Positions 2,574-20,326 of a stretch of DNA of 64,000 nucleotides are shown here, one piece after another. The translations under genes were made by a program, and so were the position numbers. Source of the DNA: Archangium sp. (GTDB taxonomy: Bacteria > Myxococcota > Myxococcia > Myxococcales > Myxococcaceae); NCBI GenBank assembly GCA_030695565.1, contig JAUYRZ010000042.1:62001-126000 (forward strand), read 5' to 3'. Position 1 is the first letter of the stretch. Each line of letters begins with the position of its first letter. A model generated the notes under the pieces. It saw only the letters and a list, made by a program, of their open reading frames with translations. It ran no database searches and was not told the origin of the DNA.

Positions 2574-3820
2574 AGCCGGCCTGGCGAATTCTCCTCGGCA
2601 AGGAGCTGCTCGACGTGGCGCGCGATCGCCGCACCCTGGTGCTCACCGTGCTGCTGCCGGTGTTGCTCTACCCGGGCATCCTGCTGCTGATGGGCGCGAT
2701 CGTCGCCGCCGGCACGCAGCGGCTGAAGAACGAGCCGCTGGTCGTGGCGGTGGTCGGTCAGGCCACGGCCGAGCTGCTCGCGCGCAAGCCCGTGCCGGAG
2801 AAGACCACCTTTCAAGCGCAGGCCCGCGCTGAGGCCGAGCGGCTGCTGCGGGATCAACAGATCGCAGCCCTGGTGGAGGCCCCACAGAACGCGGCCGCCG
2901 AGCTGGAAGCCGGCCGGCAGGTGGTGGTCACCATCCTCTACACCAAGCGGTTCGATCGTTCGGTCGAGGCGCTCGATCGCCTGCGCCCGGTGCTGGAGAG
3001 CATCAACACCGACGCGCTCGAGCTGCGCCTCGAGGCGCGCCAACTCGAGCCGGGCTTCGTGCAACCGGTGAAGGCCGACGCGGTCGATCTCGAATTCCAG
3101 AAGGACCTGGGGCCCCTGATCGCCTCGCGGCTGCTGCCCATCGTGCTGCTGATGATGTTGATCCTCGGCGCGCTCTACCCCGCGGTGGATCTGACGGCCG
3201 GTGAGAAAGAACGCGGCACGCTGGAGACGCTGCTCGTCTCAGGCGCGAGGCCCGTCGACGTGATGGCCGCCAAGTACCTCACCGTGAGCGCCGTCGCGGT
3301 GGTGACCGCGCTGGCCAACCTCGCTGCGATGGCTGCCACCTTCGGGTTCGGGCTCTCGTTCGGCGGCAAGGCCACCACCACCTTCCAGCTCAGCGGAGGT
3401 CAGATGCTCACCATGCTGGCCTGCCTGGTGCCCGCGGCGCTCCTGCTGGCCGGGGTCTCGTTGACGGTGGCCTCCACCGCGCGCACCTTCAAAGAAGGCC
3501 AGTCGTTGATGTCGCCCCTGATGTTGGTGTGCCTGGCCCCGGCGCTCCTGAGCCAGATGCCCGGGGTCGAGCTGAACAACCTGACGGCCCTCATTCCGCT
3601 GCTCAACGTGGCCCTGTTGATCAAGGCCTCAGTTCTGGGGAACGCGACCCTCACGCAGGTGGTGCTGACCATGGGTTCGGTGCTGCTCTTCGCCCTCATC
3701 GCCCTGAAAGTGGCTGCAAAGGCCTTCAACAGCGAGGTTTTCCGGTTCGGCGGAACGGAAGGGTGGAGGGCGTTGTTCGGGGAGAGTAAGTCTGCAGCCA
3801 GGCAATCGAAGCACCGGTAA
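2570..3820 (+). CDS. natB: ABC transporter permease (NatB-like)
   Basis: A 416-residue ABC-2 type permease. One N-terminal membrane helix (about residues 22-45, after KELLDVARDRRTL) is followed by an extracytoplasmic domain to about residue 180. A cluster of about five helices then includes LLPIVLLMMLILGALYPAVD. The cytoplasmic loop motif EKERGTLETLLVSGARP is typical of NatB/ABC-2 membrane proteins, where it couples to the ATPase. It overlaps the ATPase gene by 4 bases. Substrate specificity is not determinable; NatB-type sodium export is the nearest named role. Confidence 0.88.
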   Translation: MKPAWRILLGKELLDVARDRRTLVLTVLLPVLLYPGILLLMGAIVAAGTQRLKNEPLVVAVVGQATAELLARKPVPEKTTFQAQARAEAERLLRDQQIAALVEAPQNAAAELEAGRQVVVTILYTKRFDRSVEALDRLRPVLESINTDALELRLEARQLEPGFVQPVKADAVDLEFQKDLGPLIASRLLPIVLLMMLILGALYPAVDLTAGEKERGTLETLLVSGARPVDVMAAKYLTVSAVAVVTALANLAAMAATFGFGLSFGGKATTTFQLSGGQMLTMLACLVPAALLLAGVSLTVASTARTFKEGQSLMSPLMLVCLAPALLSQMPGVELNNLTALIPLLNVALLIKASVLGNATLTQVVLTMGSVLLFALIALKVAAKAFNSEVFRFGGTEGWRALFGESKSAARQSKHR

Positions 3821-3844
3821 AACCGTGTAGTTCAAACCGTGTAG
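3820..3844 (+). promoter_or_regulatory. Direct repeat upstream of pspA
   Basis: The 11-mer AAACCGTGTAG occurs twice (3820-3830 and 3834-3844) with a 14-base period. It lies in the 76-base gap between the natB stop and the pspA start. A tandem protein-binding site or an accidental duplication are both possible; no clear -10/-35 pair was identified. Confidence 0.45.
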
Positions 3845-3896
3845 AGTCGTTCTTCGTTACAGCTTCCGTTTCCTCCCATCAGGAGCACGTTCATCC

Positions 3897-4631
3897 ATGT
3901 GGCAACGGTTCAGGCGCGCGATGCGCAGCTTCGTCGGTTTCTTCGTCAGCACCATTGAGGATCCCGAGCTCATCCTCGAGCAGAACATCCGTGACCTGAA
4001 CGATCAGGTTCCCAAGATGAACGAGTCGATCGCCATGGTTCGGGCGAACGTCACGCTGCTGGAGAAGGAGAACGCGAAATACAAGATCGAGGTCAATGAT
4101 CTCACCGCCAAGGTGAAGGCCGCCATTCAGGGTGGCCGCGACGATCTCGCCGCTCAGTACGCGACCCGGCTGCAGATGGAGAAGGGCGCCCTGGCCCGCA
4201 ACGACGCCCAGCTCGCCACCGCCCGGTCGGCCTACGACAAGGCCTTGAACGTGAAGAAGGCGTTCATGCGCGAGAAGGACAAGAAGACCAACGAGGCGAT
4301 GTCGGCCATCCGCGATGCGCGCCGCGCGAAGTGGCAGTCGAAGGTCGCTGACGCGATGGAGTCCTTCGAGGTCGGCGGCATCGACGCGACGCACGACGAG
4401 ATGCTCCGCAAGGTCGAGGAGCAGACCGCCGTCAACGAAGCGCGCATGCAGATGGCGCTCGAGTCGGTCGACACCCAGTCGATGAAGATCGAAGAAGAGG
4501 CCGAGGCGCTCCAGGCCGCTGAGCTGGTGAAGCAGTTCAAGATGGAGATGGGCCTGCAGAGCCCCGCGCCCGTGTCGGACGTTTCGCAGGGCGGCGAGAA
4601 GACCATCGGTAAGAAGGTCGAGGTCAAGTAA
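3897..4631 (+). CDS. pspA: PspA/IM30 (Vipp1) family membrane-stress protein
   Basis: A 244-residue, almost entirely helical protein. It has the PspA N-terminal signature (amphipathic helix MWQRFRRAMRSFVGFF, then the DPELILEQNIRDLND segment) followed by long charged coiled coils. The length matches the family, about 220-250. The ATG at 3897 is preceded by AGGAGC. PspA/IM30 proteins are ESCRT-III-like polymers on the inner face of the cytoplasmic membrane that counter proton leakage. None of pspB, pspC or pspF is adjacent. Instead the gene heads a run containing a solute-binding protein, a coiled-coil membrane protein, a lipoprotein and an ABC transporter. Confidence 0.93.
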   Translation: MWQRFRRAMRSFVGFFVSTIEDPELILEQNIRDLNDQVPKMNESIAMVRANVTLLEKENAKYKIEVNDLTAKVKAAIQGGRDDLAAQYATRLQMEKGALARNDAQLATARSAYDKALNVKKAFMREKDKKTNEAMSAIRDARRAKWQSKVADAMESFEVGGIDATHDEMLRKVEEQTAVNEARMQMALESVDTQSMKIEEEAEALQAAELVKQFKMEMGLQSPAPVSDVSQGGEKTIGKKVEVK

Positions 4632-14858: not shown

Positions 14859-17249
14859 TCACTCCACGCGCCAGGTGACTGGAGCGAACTCCTTCTTCTT
14901 GGCGGCGTTCGCCTCAGGTTGAAGTGAAGACGCGCCCGAGTGCAGCGTGCCCGCCAGCGTGGCGATCACCTTCACGTTGGTCTGCCAGAGCGCGCCGTTG
15001 GGCTGCGACGGCAGGTGCAAGGTGAGCAGCCCGTCTTCGGTTTCATACCGGCTGATCGACCCACTCGAGACCAGCTTGGTGAGCGAGGTGGAGTCGGCCT
15101 GCACACCGGCGGGCAACGAGAGCTCCACCTGCATCGGCGTACCGCCCGGCATCGCGGCGGTGAGCTTCACGTCGGCAGGCAACCCGACCTTCAGGCTCGC
15201 GGGCAGCTCGGTCTTGAGCTCGAGCCCACCACCCGGTTCGTCCTTCCACGGCGCGTAGGAGATCAGCTGCAGGCTGTAACCAAGCCCCGGCACCGCGGGC
15301 TCGGCCCGAATCGTCCACGTGTGCGCGCCACCACTGCCGGTCGCGTCAGCGTCGAGTGAGAGCACGCTCTGCAACGCGGCGGCGTCGATGATGCCCGTGG
15401 TGATCGCCTGGCCATCGCGCTCCAGGGTGATCTTCACACCCGGCGGCACGGGATCTTTGAACAGCCGCACGGCCGCACGAAGGGCGACCAGGTTGGCGCG
15501 CCCATCGCCCCAGCCCGAGTACGACGAGTAGCCCGAGAGCAGATACGTGCCGAGATCCGCCAGCGGCGCATCCTTCACGTCTTGCAGCGCGAGGATGGCC
15601 ATCGCCGTCGCTTCGTACGTCGAAGGCGCCACGCCATCGGCGCGCACCACGCCCGGGTCGACCGGCAGGTACTTCCCGCCGTCAGAAGACTCCGCGAGCT
15701 TCTCGAGCACCCGCTTTCGCAGGCTGTCACCCACGCCGCCGGTGATCGCCCCCGACGCGAGGATCGCCGCCGCCGTGTACGCGTCGTTGACCCGCGCCGC
15801 GTTGCGCTCGAAGGCGCCCGAGGCCTTCAAGGTGACCGCCGTCGCGCGCTGGCGAGCCGCGGGCGTCTCCATCGAAGCCCGCGCGGCGCGCACGCAATCA
15901 GAGGTGGTCACCAGCAACCGCTGGAGCGTCCACCCATTGGCGCCCTGGCACGTACCGTCTGCGCGCTGCTGCTGAGCGACCTGCAGCGCGAGCCGTTCAC
16001 CCAGGCGCGCGAGCACCGGGTTCTGCGGGTGCGCCAGCGCGGCTTCCGTCAGCAGCGTGGCCGTGTCGACCGAAGGCGAGCGCGCGTACTGCATCACCCG
16101 CTGCGTCGCGAGAATGGAGAGGTCGCGAATCACCGGCTCGTCGGCCTTGGCGCCCAACGAGTTGAGCAGCGCCGGCGCCTGACCCAGCAGCTGCAGCAGG
16201 TACGCGTCTTCCGCCACGCCACCGCGGCCGGGCGCTGCCGACAGCTCGTTGCGGATGAGACCGAGTGCACCGGGGTACACGCGCAGGCGCACCGCTTCGG
16301 TACCAGGCAGCGGGTTCGCCGGGCCCGAGAGCGAGAACGTGCGGGGCGCGGCGAGCGTGCCTGCCTTGCTCACCAGCTCACGACGGCCTGCGGGCTTGAG
16401 CTCGATGCTCTTCTCGATCGCGTCGGTATTTCCGAGCGTGGCCTTGAACGACGCAATGCCGGGCTTGGTGGTGTTCAACGTCACGTACTGCAGCGCGTTG
16501 CCGCCGGCAGGCACCTTCACCACGCCGCCCGTGCCTGACAGCGTGGCGCCGGAGATCTCGTAGGCGAGCGACGTGGTGATGTCGGCGTCGGTGGTGTTCA
16601 CCACCTGAATCGGCAACCGCACCGAGTCGCCCGCGTAGAGGAACGCCGGGGTCACCGGCTCGACGTAGGTGGGCAGGGTGCCGAGGAAGCTCGCCACGCT
16701 GCCGGCCTGGCTGCCTTGCCGCGAATGCGCGAGCGCGAGCAGCCGCCAGGTGGTGAGGCGATCAGGCACTTTCACCGGGATGTTGGCCCGGCCCTGCGCA
16801 TCGGTGACGATCAACGGCTCGAAGAGAAACGTCTCGGGGAACCACGCGCGGGTCGCAGCGGGCTGCGCCAGCTCGCCATCCATCGCTTCTGATTCGGCGG
16901 GGGCGTCCATGAGCCCGGCCTGCACCATGGGCGTGGTGACCGCCCCCAGGCTGCCGTAGCCATTGCCCGAGCCGCCACCGCCCCGGCCGGAGCCCTTGAG
17001 GCCGAGGCCGCCCAGACCGACCGCGGCGCGCTTCTTCTCCATCTTGCCCATCACCCCTTCGTCCATCTTGGGGGGCGGTGCTGCGAACACCTGCACGGGG
17101 GAAGGCGCTGCTTCCTCTCGGTAGTATCGATCGTCACTGCCCGACAAGGCGTCGGCGCTGGGGCTCATGGCTCTGGGGCTCGCCAGCCCGAGGAAGGTGA
17201 TGAACAGGATCGCGACGGCGGTGAGCGCGAGAATGAGGAACTTCTTCAT
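14859..17249 (-). CDS. Alpha-2-macroglobulin family protein, C-terminal half
   Basis: 796 residues from the ATG at 17249, preceded by GAAGGAG; this ATG overlaps the previous gene's TGA (ATGA), so the upstream TTG at 17279 is rejected. Residues 1-24 form a signal or anchor helix (MKKFLILALTAVAILFITFL). A Gly-rich linker follows (about 68-92). The A2M domain begins near 133 (AWFPETFLFEPLIVTDAQG ... VPDRLTTWRLLALA) and leads into an alpha/alpha thioester-like domain and a C-terminal receptor-like beta domain. The thioester Cys-x-Glu-Gln is absent: the expected position (about 333) reads APGRGGVAEDAY. It probably assembles with the upstream gene product. Confidence 0.88.
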   Translation of the reverse strand: MKKFLILALTAVAILFITFLGLASPRAMSPSADALSGSDDRYYREEAAPSPVQVFAAPPPKMDEGVMGKMEKKRAAVGLGGLGLKGSGRGGGGSGNGYGSLGAVTTPMVQAGLMDAPAESEAMDGELAQPAATRAWFPETFLFEPLIVTDAQGRANIPVKVPDRLTTWRLLALAHSRQGSQAGSVASFLGTLPTYVEPVTPAFLYAGDSVRLPIQVVNTTDADITTSLAYEISGATLSGTGGVVKVPAGGNALQYVTLNTTKPGIASFKATLGNTDAIEKSIELKPAGRRELVSKAGTLAAPRTFSLSGPANPLPGTEAVRLRVYPGALGLIRNELSAAPGRGGVAEDAYLLQLLGQAPALLNSLGAKADEPVIRDLSILATQRVMQYARSPSVDTATLLTEAALAHPQNPVLARLGERLALQVAQQQRADGTCQGANGWTLQRLLVTTSDCVRAARASMETPAARQRATAVTLKASGAFERNAARVNDAYTAAAILASGAITGGVGDSLRKRVLEKLAESSDGGKYLPVDPGVVRADGVAPSTYEATAMAILALQDVKDAPLADLGTYLLSGYSSYSGWGDGRANLVALRAAVRLFKDPVPPGVKITLERDGQAITTGIIDAAALQSVLSLDADATGSGGAHTWTIRAEPAVPGLGYSLQLISYAPWKDEPGGGLELKTELPASLKVGLPADVKLTAAMPGGTPMQVELSLPAGVQADSTSLTKLVSSGSISRYETEDGLLTLHLPSQPNGALWQTNVKVIATLAGTLHSGASSLQPEANAAKKKEFAPVTWRVE

Positions 17250-20200
17250 GGCTTCTCCTTCGCAACCCACTGCGACCAATTCTGAGTGTCTTCCGGCAGC
17301 CGGGTTCCGTTGATCACCACGGAGCGCGGCTCGGTGAGCGCGAGCAGGTCAGCTGGCAAGCGATGCAGCCTGAGCTTTCTGCCCCACGCATCGCGCGCCG
17401 AGTCTTTCCTCGACTCCACGGCGTCGAGTGACTGGTTCCACAACCGCGCCATCACGGGCGGCGTCATCTTCTCCGAGCCGGGTGCCGACGACTCCCACGT
17501 GCGCACCTGGGTGTAGAGCTCGCCCAACACCACGTAGAACCGATCGACCTGCGCTTCGTTGGGATCGAACACCGTGCTCCCTGAGATCGACACCGAGGCT
17601 TCGACCTGCGGAGGCGGCGGCATCGACGACACGCGAGCGAGCGTCGCGGCCGCAGCATTGGCACCGCGAATCCGGCCCAGCGAGAGCGCCTGCGCATCCA
17701 TCGAGCCGAACGCCGCCGTGCCCGTCGCCTGCGGCCTCAACGGCGCGAGCTCATCGGCGCCGGGAAGCGAAGCGAGCTGCGAGAGGCTCTCGTCGACGCC
17801 GAACAACCCGACGGCTGCAGCGCCTCCCGTGCCGCCCACCGTCGTCTCGATGCCCAGCTGCGCGACCTGACCGGGGGCGTACCGTTCTTTCTCGGGCGTC
17901 ACCTTCACCGAGAGCGCTGCGTTGGGCTGCACGAAGAGGAACACCTGGCCGCCGCCCCACTGCACGCCGGCCCAGCCCTGCCAGTCAGCGGGGATGGTGA
18001 AGTCGGCGCTGCGCGTGGAGGGGTCGACCTTCGCTTCTTGCGACTGGAAGGCGTGCGTGAGGAAGAGCTTCTCGGGCAGCTCGCCGGTGAAGTCGGGCCC
18101 GCGCAGGATCTCCACCTTCACGTGCTCGCCCGCCTTGAGCAGTTGCGTGGAAGCGCGCAGGCGGATCTGCGGAACGGTGCCGGGGTTCATGCGCAGCCGG
18201 GTGCTGCCGAACACCTCGGTGCCCTTCTTCGCGGTGACCAGGAACTCGTACCCGACCATCACGGTGTCTTGCGGCTTGAGCGACTCGTACTTCTCCGGAG
18301 CGTTCACCGAGACGGTGGCCACCCCGATGGAGCTCTCCTCTTCCTGCGGCTCGACGTCGAGCTGCTTGGGGAACTGCAGCGTCTTCACCCGCGAGGTGAT
18401 GCAGGCGAGCGCGGACTCTGCGTACGCGTCACCCTTCACCGGCACCCAGTCGAGCTCGACCCGTTTCCAATCGGCGCTGACCTTCCAGTGGATCATGCGC
18501 GGCAGCACGCCGGTCTTGACGGTGGCGGGCAGGCAATCGCGCGCCTCCAGCATCGCGTCGGCCAGCGCCAACTGCAGCGGCTCGGGCGGCTGCGGGAAAC
18601 CATCGAGGGTGATCTCGAAGCGGGGCAGTTCCTCATCGTTGAAGGACCAGCTGGCCTCGAAGAAGCGCTCCTTGCCGGCGCCCAGCTGCAGGCTCTTGAG
18701 CACGCCCTCCATGCACTTGCCGAGCTTCGAGGTGGGCAGCGCCATCGACACCACCGCGCCCGAAGAACGCACCAGCAGACCGACGCTCACCTCCGCTCCG
18801 CCGTCGAGCACATAGCGCGCACACGGCTCGAGCTTCGCGTCGAGGCGATCGAAGGCCATGCGATCGGCCAACGACACCTCACCATCGTCTTCGTTGAGAC
18901 CGAGGCGCTCCGAGAGACCGTTGCGCACCACCAGCTTGGTGCGGGGCGGGGGGCGGAAGGGCATCGCGGGGATCACGATGTTCACCGGCGGGCCGGGGTC
19001 GACCTGCAGGCTCGCCACACCGTCTTCATCGACCTTCGCTTCGGTGCCCTTGTCGGTGGGCTCCCAGAGGCGCTTCACGTTGAGGGTCACGCCTTCGAGC
19101 ACGCGGCCATCGGCGGTCGTCGCGCGCAGGAAGAGGCGGTTGTTGAAACCCTCCACCAGGCCGTCGGCGAGCTCGGTGACGCCGGAGGTGCCGATCAGAT
19201 CTTGCGAGAGGAGAATGGACGCGCCGCCTTCCACCCGATCGCCCGCTGCATCGACGGCGCCGATGCTCACGCTCAGCGTGGCTTGACCTTGCAGATCGTC
19301 GGGCACCATCGGCAGCTCAGCGGTGAAGGCGCCGCTCGCGTTGGTGGTGGCGAGCTTCGGCAGCGCGTTGCCGTCGACCCAGCTGGTCGGCGGCGGCCAC
19401 TCACCCGACACGTTCCAGTCCAGCTCGAGCTTCGCGTTCGCCACCGGAGCGCCCGAGCTGTAGGTGACCGAGCCCTTGAGCACCGGCCGCTCATTGCGGC
19501 GGTAGAACGGTTTGACGGGCGAGGCCTCGACGCGGAAGCGGGGCAGGGTGAACGGCTTGACCGTGAAGGTGCGCGACTCGCTGCTGGCGCCCGACTGCCA
19601 GGTCACCGTCCACGTGCCCGACTGGCTGCCGCGATCGATGGGGAAGGTGCCCGAGACCACGCCCCAGGGTCCCGTGGGAGCGCGCTCCTCGAGCAGCAGC
19701 TCACCTTGCGAATCGGTGACCCGCCAGGTGCCGGGGCGTTCCTCGAGCGGCGTGAGGTCGGAGGCCTTGAGGGCGACCGCGCGAAACTTCACCACGTTGC
19801 CGGGCTCGTAGAGCGGGCGGTCGGTGATCACGTGCACGCGCGCGGGCGTGTAGAGCGGCAGCGGCAGGTCGAGCACCTGCTCGCCGATGGGCGAGGTGAT
19901 GCGGGTGCGCAGCGTGTAGTCGCCGTCATTCACCTTCGGCAGCTCGACCTCGGCCTGCAGCCCGCCGCCTGCCTTTTCCCAACTCTTCTTTGCGGGCAGC
20001 TGCGTCTCACCGGTCGCGCTCACCAGTGAGACGATGGGCGTGAAGTTGGTGATGGCCTCGGTGCGCCGCTGATCATTGGGCGCCACCAGGTAGGTCGCGT
20101 TGACGGTCACCCGCACCGAACCGAACGCGCCGCGTTTGAGCTCCGGGGCGGAGACGTTGATGGTCTGGCGCAGCTCTCCATCGGGGCACTCGTCGAGCCA

Positions 20201-20326
20201 GAGCCCGGTGGAGAAGCCGACGCGCAGACAGGTCTGCGTGCTGGCGAAGCCCACGATGACGGCCAGGCCGACGGCCAGACCAATGACAAGACGGCGGCTC
20301 ACGGCGCCATGGGGTTGAGTTCGCAT
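17246..20326 (-). CDS. Alpha-2-macroglobulin family protein, N-terminal (MG-domain) half
   Basis: 1026 residues from the ATG at 20326; a 61-residue upstream extension is compositionally unlike protein and is rejected. An N-terminal helix (RRLVIGLAVGLAVIVGFAS) anchors or exports it. The MG2-type phrase VHVITDRPLYEPGNVVKFRA near residue 165 identifies the family, and further MG beta domains follow. In the middle (about 485-655) lie two similar segments, each with a Cys pair (LEPCARYV ... LGKCMEG and ARDCLPAT ... LACITSR), resembling AgmX/TonB-C-type folds inserted in the chain. It ends in a 4-base overlap with the second-half gene. Periplasmic protease-trap-like role by family; not shown. Confidence 0.85.
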   Translation of the reverse strand: MRTQPHGAVSRRLVIGLAVGLAVIVGFASTQTCLRVGFSTGLWLDECPDGELRQTINVSAPELKRGAFGSVRVTVNATYLVAPNDQRRTEAITNFTPIVSLVSATGETQLPAKKSWEKAGGGLQAEVELPKVNDGDYTLRTRITSPIGEQVLDLPLPLYTPARVHVITDRPLYEPGNVVKFRAVALKASDLTPLEERPGTWRVTDSQGELLLEERAPTGPWGVVSGTFPIDRGSQSGTWTVTWQSGASSESRTFTVKPFTLPRFRVEASPVKPFYRRNERPVLKGSVTYSSGAPVANAKLELDWNVSGEWPPPTSWVDGNALPKLATTNASGAFTAELPMVPDDLQGQATLSVSIGAVDAAGDRVEGGASILLSQDLIGTSGVTELADGLVEGFNNRLFLRATTADGRVLEGVTLNVKRLWEPTDKGTEAKVDEDGVASLQVDPGPPVNIVIPAMPFRPPPRTKLVVRNGLSERLGLNEDDGEVSLADRMAFDRLDAKLEPCARYVLDGGAEVSVGLLVRSSGAVVSMALPTSKLGKCMEGVLKSLQLGAGKERFFEASWSFNDEELPRFEITLDGFPQPPEPLQLALADAMLEARDCLPATVKTGVLPRMIHWKVSADWKRVELDWVPVKGDAYAESALACITSRVKTLQFPKQLDVEPQEEESSIGVATVSVNAPEKYESLKPQDTVMVGYEFLVTAKKGTEVFGSTRLRMNPGTVPQIRLRASTQLLKAGEHVKVEILRGPDFTGELPEKLFLTHAFQSQEAKVDPSTRSADFTIPADWQGWAGVQWGGGQVFLFVQPNAALSVKVTPEKERYAPGQVAQLGIETTVGGTGGAAAVGLFGVDESLSQLASLPGADELAPLRPQATGTAAFGSMDAQALSLGRIRGANAAAATLARVSSMPPPPQVEASVSISGSTVFDPNEAQVDRFYVVLGELYTQVRTWESSAPGSEKMTPPVMARLWNQSLDAVESRKDSARDAWGRKLRLHRLPADLLALTEPRSVVINGTRLPEDTQNWSQWVAKEKP

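What the first reader, a model, noticed from the sequence alone, without database searches (positions are those of the whole stretch)
14859..20326. Alpha-2-macroglobulin split into two coupled genes, thioester lost, with a Cys-paired insert
The family is normally one long chain. Here the MG half and the A2M/thioester-like half are separate genes with an ATGA overlap and a second signal helix, so the split is functional, not a frameshift. The thioester motif is absent. Within the first half, two segments with Cys pairs resemble AgmX/TonB-C-type domains. This could be a two-chain protease trap or an adhesion complex. The domain match is by eye.
Basis: partly seen in the sequence, partly recalled or inferred. 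Interest (0 to 1): 0.68.

Follow-up and report, generated by a model that had tools for sequence, protein, structure and literature searches.

The report
Two-gene complement-like macroglobulin in myxobacteria
Myxobacteria carry a relative of the immune proteins alpha-2-macroglobulin and complement C3 that is made from two overlapping genes, cut at the place where complement C3 is cut into its two chains, and that lacks the reactive bond these proteins normally use to trap their targets, so it must work in another way.

Summary
Window 14859-20326 (minus strand) encodes an N chain (1026 aa) and a C chain (796 aa) overlapping by ATGA. Predicted structures place them on the complement C3 beta chain and alpha' chain; the gene break falls at the bait position, inside the MG6 domain, whose halves lie on different chains. 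It is not a local frameshift: all 86 sampled genomes with a strong N match also have C, and no fusion was found among 65 named loci, including Myxococcus, Corallococcus, Archangium and Kofleriaceae. The thioester motif is absent in all 78 pairs aligned; four single-chain paralogs in the same genome keep it. The Cys-paired insert between MG4 and MG5 is two AgmX/PglI C-terminal (TonB-C-like) domains, with four Cys invariant in 78 of 78. Most likely the chains form a membrane-tethered periplasmic heterodimer that cannot act as a classical bait-and-thioester trap. Its biological role (non-covalent protease guard or envelope adaptor) is open. The literature searched shows no description of it. In passing: single-chain A2Ms of two related genomes have in-frame TGA exactly at the thioester Cys, which suggests selenocysteine.

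The parts
17246..20326 (-). N chain gene (1026 aa), equivalent to a complement beta chain: signal anchor, MG1-MG4, two AgmX/PglI-C domains, MG5, MG6-beta, conserved C-terminal helical domain
14859..17249 (-). C chain gene (796 aa), equivalent to a complement alpha' chain: signal helix, disordered linker, MG6-alpha, MG7, CUB, TED, MG8
17246..17249 (-). ATGA stop/start overlap of the two genes, conserved in relatives
17255..17260 (-). AAGGAG ribosome-binding site for the C chain, inside the N coding sequence
   Evidence: similar G-rich sites in relatives
20234..20296 (-). hydrophobic helix (signal anchor) of the N chain, residues 11-31
19559..19843 (-). MG2 domain, residues 162-256
   Evidence: Pfam PF01835; VIA match to human A2M MG2 (2p9r_B, Z 15.3, rmsd 1.6)
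18596..18871 (-). first AgmX/PglI C-terminal-like domain, residues 486-577 (Cys502, Cys538)
   Evidence: hhalign to NF033768 members, prob 93; controls; AF2 topology H-E-E-H-E
18302..18583 (-). second AgmX/PglI C-terminal-like domain, residues 582-675 (Cys598, Cys642)
   Evidence: hhalign prob 76-77; AF2
17774..17977 (-). MG6-beta half, residues 784-851, ending in the conserved GLFGVDESL strand
   Evidence: Pfam A2M_BRD end; AF2; VIA
17249..17719 (-). conserved C-terminal helical domain of the N chain, residues 870-1026, in the place of the bait/anaphylatoxin
   Evidence: conservation; AF2; identity of fold not determined
17184..17246 (-). signal helix of the C chain, residues 2-22 (lipobox-like in distant relatives)
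16860..17183 (-). disordered, fast-evolving, Ala/Gly/Pro-rich linker of the C chain, residues 23-130; holds a Gly module also found next to AgmX tails in two other proteins of this genome
16680..16859 (-). MG6-alpha half, residues 131-190 (RAWFPETFLF), low model confidence without its partner
   Evidence: Pfam A2M; VIA
16461..16679 (-). MG7 domain, residues 191-263
16272..16460 (-). CUB domain, first part, residues 264-326
15462..16271 (-). TED alpha-toroid, residues 327-596
   Evidence: AF2; VIA to C5 TED 9y6c_A Z 23.5 rmsd 3.2 and C4d 1hzf Z 22.2
16206..16220 (-). site of the lost thioester (GVAED in place of GCxEQ)
15240..15461 (-). CUB domain, second part, residues 597-670
14865..15221 (-). 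MG8/receptor-binding-like domain, residues 677-795

Best explanation
A two-chain member of the A2M/complement superfamily. The N chain (like a C3 beta chain) and the C chain (like a C3 alpha' chain) are translated in a coupled way, exported separately, each held at a membrane by its own N-terminal signal anchor (or lipid anchor in distant relatives), and joined in the periplasm into one heterodimer through the shared MG6 domain, of which each chain carries one half. It is thus born in the state that other A2Ms reach only after bait cleavage. It has no thioester, so it binds without that covalent bond. Shown: gene structure, conservation, absence of the motif, predicted folds. Inferred: physical pairing through MG6 (about 0.8) and location. 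Guessed: that the long disordered tether of the C chain, which sits where the bait region sits in single chains, is the part that proteases can cut, so that the complex guards or senses proteolysis in the periplasm without covalent trapping (about 0.35), with the two AgmX-type domains docking it to envelope partners.
For: VIA: C chain 137-792 on C3 743-1473 (2a73_B, Z 26.2), TEP1 (Z 27.0), A2ML1 (Z 26.5). N chain 53-919 on C3c beta chain 1-628 (2a74_A, Z 16.5). Model confidence drops at the MG6 halves: C 131-190 (pLDDT about 56-66), N 801-870 (60-78), as expected when half of a domain is missing. Genes adjacent or overlapping in the named loci with both, 0 of 65 fused; 86 of 86 genomes with N have C; distances of the two chains correlate at 0.93. 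Thioester absent 78/78. Type II A2M MagD, also without thioester, still holds a protease, and its bait-cut halves of 91 and 74 kDa stay together (PMC5764988). Linker disordered and fast-evolving, pairwise identity 0.16-0.28 against 0.34-0.75 in the folded part.
Against: No complex was modelled (the two chains are too long for one job), so MG6 pairing is indirect. The distance correlation partly reflects common descent. The region in the bait place on the N chain (870-1026) is among the most conserved parts, unlike a bait. No expression, localisation or phenotype data. The protease link rests on relatives only.
Confidence: 0.6

Rival explanations
1. Envelope adaptor: the heterodimer is a structural scaffold or adhesion-type adaptor of the myxobacterial envelope, with the AgmX/PglI-type domains as docking modules; it has no protease role.
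For: Two AgmX-type domains with invariant Cys inserted in the MG ring. The Gly module of C-chain linkers is shared in this genome with AgmX-tail proteins. Bait continuity and thioester both lost. The genome keeps four thioester A2Ms, two next to PbpC, for ordinary trapping.
Against: AgmX-type tails are common in this genome (20 over cut-off) and say little about function. The strict Gly motif is in only 10 of 79 linkers. TED, CUB and MG8, the moving parts of the trap, are all kept.
Confidence: 0.35
2. Non-covalent two-chain protease trap in which cleavage of the C-chain tether replaces bait cleavage.
For: Linker in the bait place, disordered, fast-evolving, mostly 97-198 residues from the start to the WFP motif. 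MagD precedent for trapping without thioester (PMC5764988).
Against: No bond between the halves is left to hold the native state under tension; no direct evidence.
Confidence: 0.3
3. The two genes are rejoined in expression by programmed frameshifting, giving one ordinary long A2M.
For: The overlap puts the C chain one base back from the N frame in most members.
Against: C chains have their own ribosome-binding site and signal or lipobox; other members have TAAATG, TGATG or a short gap after TAG.
Confidence: 0.02
4. Sequencing frameshift or pseudogene.
For: None beyond the broken gene itself.
Against: Conserved in dozens of genomes, isolates and MAGs.
Confidence: 0.01

Closest known systems
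Complement C3b / C3c (beta and alpha' chains)
   Same: Same order of domains, same chain break at the bait/anaphylatoxin, two chains sharing MG6
   Different: In C3 the break is made by proteases in one translated chain and the chains are disulfide-linked; here two genes. No thioester, no C345C, an AgmX-type insert between MG4 and MG5, membrane anchors
Bacterial type II A2M (P. aeruginosa MagD; E. coli YfaS)
   Same: No thioester, envelope protein, MG domains and TED (PMC5764988)
   Different: Single chain with a bait region, in a multi-gene operon; here a two-gene unit without neighbours conserved beyond the genus and its nearest relatives
Bacterial type I A2M (ECAM/YfhM, Salmonella A2M) with PbpC
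   Same: Fold; lipoprotein-like anchor of the C chain in distant members
   Different: Single chain, GCxEQ thioester and PbpC neighbour; this genome has two such loci separately
Single-chain Myxococcota A2Ms with a DPWG-type insert before FPET
   Same: An insert with a D(A/P)WG motif sits in the same place as the N-chain C-terminus
   Different: One chain, GCFEQ present; profile comparison did not support homology of the insert (prob about 1)
AgmX/PglI C-terminal domain (NF033768; GltJ/GltG of M. xanthus gliding)
   Same: Helix-strand-strand-helix-strand topology and Cys pair; the GltG tail is annotated as TonB domain in PMC3169522
   Different: Normally one copy at a C-terminus; here two copies inside an MG ring

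Membership tests
A2M/complement superfamily | MG2 and A2M (MG6-alpha/MG7) domains by profile | tested here: met
   PF01835 E 3e-15, PF00207 E 7e-14, both over cut-off
A2M/complement superfamily | MG ring, CUB, TED and MG8 fold | tested here: met
   VIA Z 24-27 for C over 600+ residues, Z 14-16.5 for N, on predicted models
A2M/complement superfamily | single translated polypeptide | tested here: not met
   two genes, 0 of 65 named loci fused; the superfamily is defined by domains, so this is a variant, not an exclusion
Type I bacterial A2M | CxEQ thioester | tested here: not met
   absent in 78 of 78 aligned pairs
Type I bacterial A2M | adjacent PbpC | tested here: not met
   not next to the pair in the window; no neighbour conserved beyond the genus and nearest relatives
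Type II bacterial A2M | no thioester | tested here: met
Type II bacterial A2M | bait region as continuous link between MG6 halves | tested here: not met
   the halves are on separate genes
Type II bacterial A2M | mag/yfa-type operon partners | tested here: inconclusive
   no conserved neighbours found; MagA/B/F profiles were not searched
Protease trap | retains protease after cleavage | not testable with these tools
   needs purified protein
AgmX/PglI C-terminal domain (NF033768) | profile similarity | tested here: met
   hhalign prob 93 and 76-77 against NF033768 hits of this genome; windows clear of the insert at most about 3, shuffled or reversed at most 2.2. Plain hmmscan gave no hit at E 1, so the relation is distant
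AgmX/PglI C-terminal domain (NF033768) | Cys pair | tested here: met
   C502, C538, C598, C642 in 78 of 78; the disulfides themselves were not tested

The most novel reading that the evidence does not exclude
A bacterial C3b-like receptor: a constitutively two-chain, thioester-free macroglobulin heterodimer, made by gene fission at the bait rather than by proteolysis, that has given up trapping and works as a tethered binding or sensing complex of the myxobacterial envelope.
Probability: 0.4. Interest if true: 0.75.

Novelty: new variant of a known kind. Interest (0 to 1): 0.6.

Why it matters
In complement and A2M, cutting at the bait is the switch. Here a lineage has fixed that cut in its genes and dropped the thioester, while keeping every moving domain. 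This gives a natural test of what the fold can do without bait and thioester, and a ready two-chain system for studying MG6 assembly. The pair is in Myxococcus xanthus, so it can be tested genetically.

Tried and rejected
Conserved neighbours as a clue to function: only antisense ORFs inside the pair itself clustered widely across loci; the real neighbours are conserved only in the genus and its nearest relatives. Homology of the N-chain C-terminus to the DPWG-type insert of single-chain A2Ms: only a shared DAWGR-like motif, profile prob about 1. The Pfam T2SSG hit in that insert of a single chain is weak, E 0.021. NCBIfam gave no hit for either chain. A tree of C chains with single chains put all 26 two-chain sequences in one group, but the reported node support is 0.16 after re-rooting, so it is not used as proof of one origin. 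Whole-chain TM-scores from Foldseek are low because the domains move relative to each other; the VIA table and E-values were used instead. Literature searches found no paper on a split A2M or on these proteins in myxobacteria.

Full report
What is there. On the minus strand, 17246-20326 encodes a 1026-aa N chain and 14859-17249 a 796-aa C chain; stop and start share ATGA at 17246-17249. The C chain has a ribosome-binding site, AAGGAG, inside the N gene. Pfam finds MG2 and the end of the bait-region domain in N, and the A2M domain in C.

It is conserved as two genes. In 193 genomes of the phylum, 86 have a strong N match and all 86 have a strong C match; one further genome has C and an N fragment at a contig end. 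In the 19 loci from other genomes examined the start codon of C overlaps the N stop by four bases. Of 65 named loci with both genes (one search gives the names: Myxococcus xanthus, Corallococcus, Pyxidicoccus, Archangium, Hyalangium, Citreicoccus, Kofleriaceae and Deltaproteobacteria MAGs), 58 have the same overlap, none is fused, and the rest include TAAATG, TGATG, a short gap, or damaged reading frames. The different stop codons and the separate signal sequences speak against readthrough. Neighbours are not conserved beyond the genus and its nearest relatives, so the pair is the unit.

Fold. AlphaFold2 models: N mean pLDDT 84.4, C 79.4. By VIA-align the C chain from residue 136 to its end lies on C3, C5, TEP1 and A2M from just after the bait or anaphylatoxin (Z 24-27, over 600 residues; rmsd is large because domains shift), and the TED alone lies on C5 TED with Z 23.5, rmsd 3.2. 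The N chain lies on the complement beta chain, C3c residues 1-628, Z 16.5. So the gene break falls where C3 is divided into beta and alpha' chains, within MG6. The MG6 halves are the parts with lowered confidence in each single-chain model (C 131-190; N about 801-870), which fits a domain completed only by the partner. Pairing itself was not modelled.

Thioester. The motif is absent in all 78 pairs aligned; single-chain homologs have GCFEQ or GCMEQ at the aligned place, where the two-chain proteins most often read RGGVAED or similar. The same genome has four single-chain A2Ms with GCxEQ, two of them next to a PbpC-type transglycosylase/transpeptidase.

Insert. Residues 486-577 and 582-675, between MG4 and MG5, match the AgmX/PglI C-terminal domain by profile comparison with members found in this genome: prob 93 and 76. 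A scan of all windows of both chains shows signal only there; shuffled and reversed controls give at most 2.2. The model topology is helix, two strands, helix, strand(s), and the four Cys are invariant in 78 of 78. The tail of GltG (PglI) carries the Pfam TonB domain in PMC3169522.

Linker. C residues 23-130 are disordered and fast-evolving. In some relatives this linker holds a Gly-rich module (GIGGIGTKGRGGG...). Searching this genome with one such linker gave, below E 0.1, only a 647-aa AgmX-tail protein and the C chain of this pair; a second AgmX-tail protein follows at E 0.6 among other weak hits. The strict motif is in 10 of 79 linkers. So tail domains on the N chain and the Gly module that precedes such tails elsewhere, here on the C chain, may belong together; the evidence is thin because the sequence is Gly-rich.

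Anchors. The N chain starts with a hydrophobic helix followed by conserved Cys33 and Cys47. The C chain starts with a hydrophobic helix in Myxococcaceae and with lipobox-like sequences in distant relatives, such as LISC, AVGC, LSCG.

Mechanism. The classical trap needs a bait that joins the two halves and a thioester; this protein has neither. Type II A2M MagD shows that thioester loss alone does not end protease retention and that bait-cut halves stay together (PMC5764988). The best-supported reading is a tethered heterodimer in a permanently bait-cut state. Whether it still binds proteases through its linker (about 0.3-0.35) or serves as an envelope adaptor (about 0.35) cannot be decided from sequence.

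Novelty. A member of a known superfamily in a new arrangement: new variant of a known kind. No description was found in the library searched; papers outside it were not seen.

By the way. Three single-chain A2M genes in two genomes of another Myxococcota family have TGA exactly at the thioester Cys codon, with the frame conserved for about 470 codons after it. These genomes have tRNA-Sec and SelB, and a stem-loop can form after the TGA. A selenocysteine in the thioester motif is the natural reading; no paper on it was found.

Noticed in passing
L081 4474-7962 (-) with 3022-4440 (-); L082 24-3899 (+) and 6718-12024 (+): Single-chain A2Ms with in-frame TGA exactly at the thioester Cys codon (LPGG-TGA-FEQ), frame conserved for about 470 codons afterwards, in three genes of two genomes; tRNA-Sec and SelB present and a stem-loop follows. 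Suggests selenocysteine in the thioester motif.
   Followed up: partly
L227/L228 (G000:C121:32317-32499), L231 (G000:C84:34161-34244), window 16860-17183: A Gly-rich module in C-chain linkers of relatives recurs in this genome next to AgmX/PglI tails of two other proteins (E 1e-5 and 0.6) and in the window's own C-chain linker (E 0.02).
   Followed up: partly
L086 3506-9535 (-), L089 3364-9213 (-), L087 3734-9376 (-), L088 2823-6908 (-): Four single-chain A2Ms of the same genome, all with GCxEQ; two are followed by PbpC-type genes.
   Followed up: yes
L095 4440-9854 (-): An 1804-aa A2M with a zf-HC2 (anti-sigma-type zinc finger) match at its N-terminus, E 4e-4, just under the curated cut-off.
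   Followed up: no
L216 (BNCN01000015.1): A record titled Comamonas sp. KCTC 72670 encodes this pair at 46% identity, like Myxococcus; the label of the record is probably wrong or the assembly contaminated.
   Followed up: no
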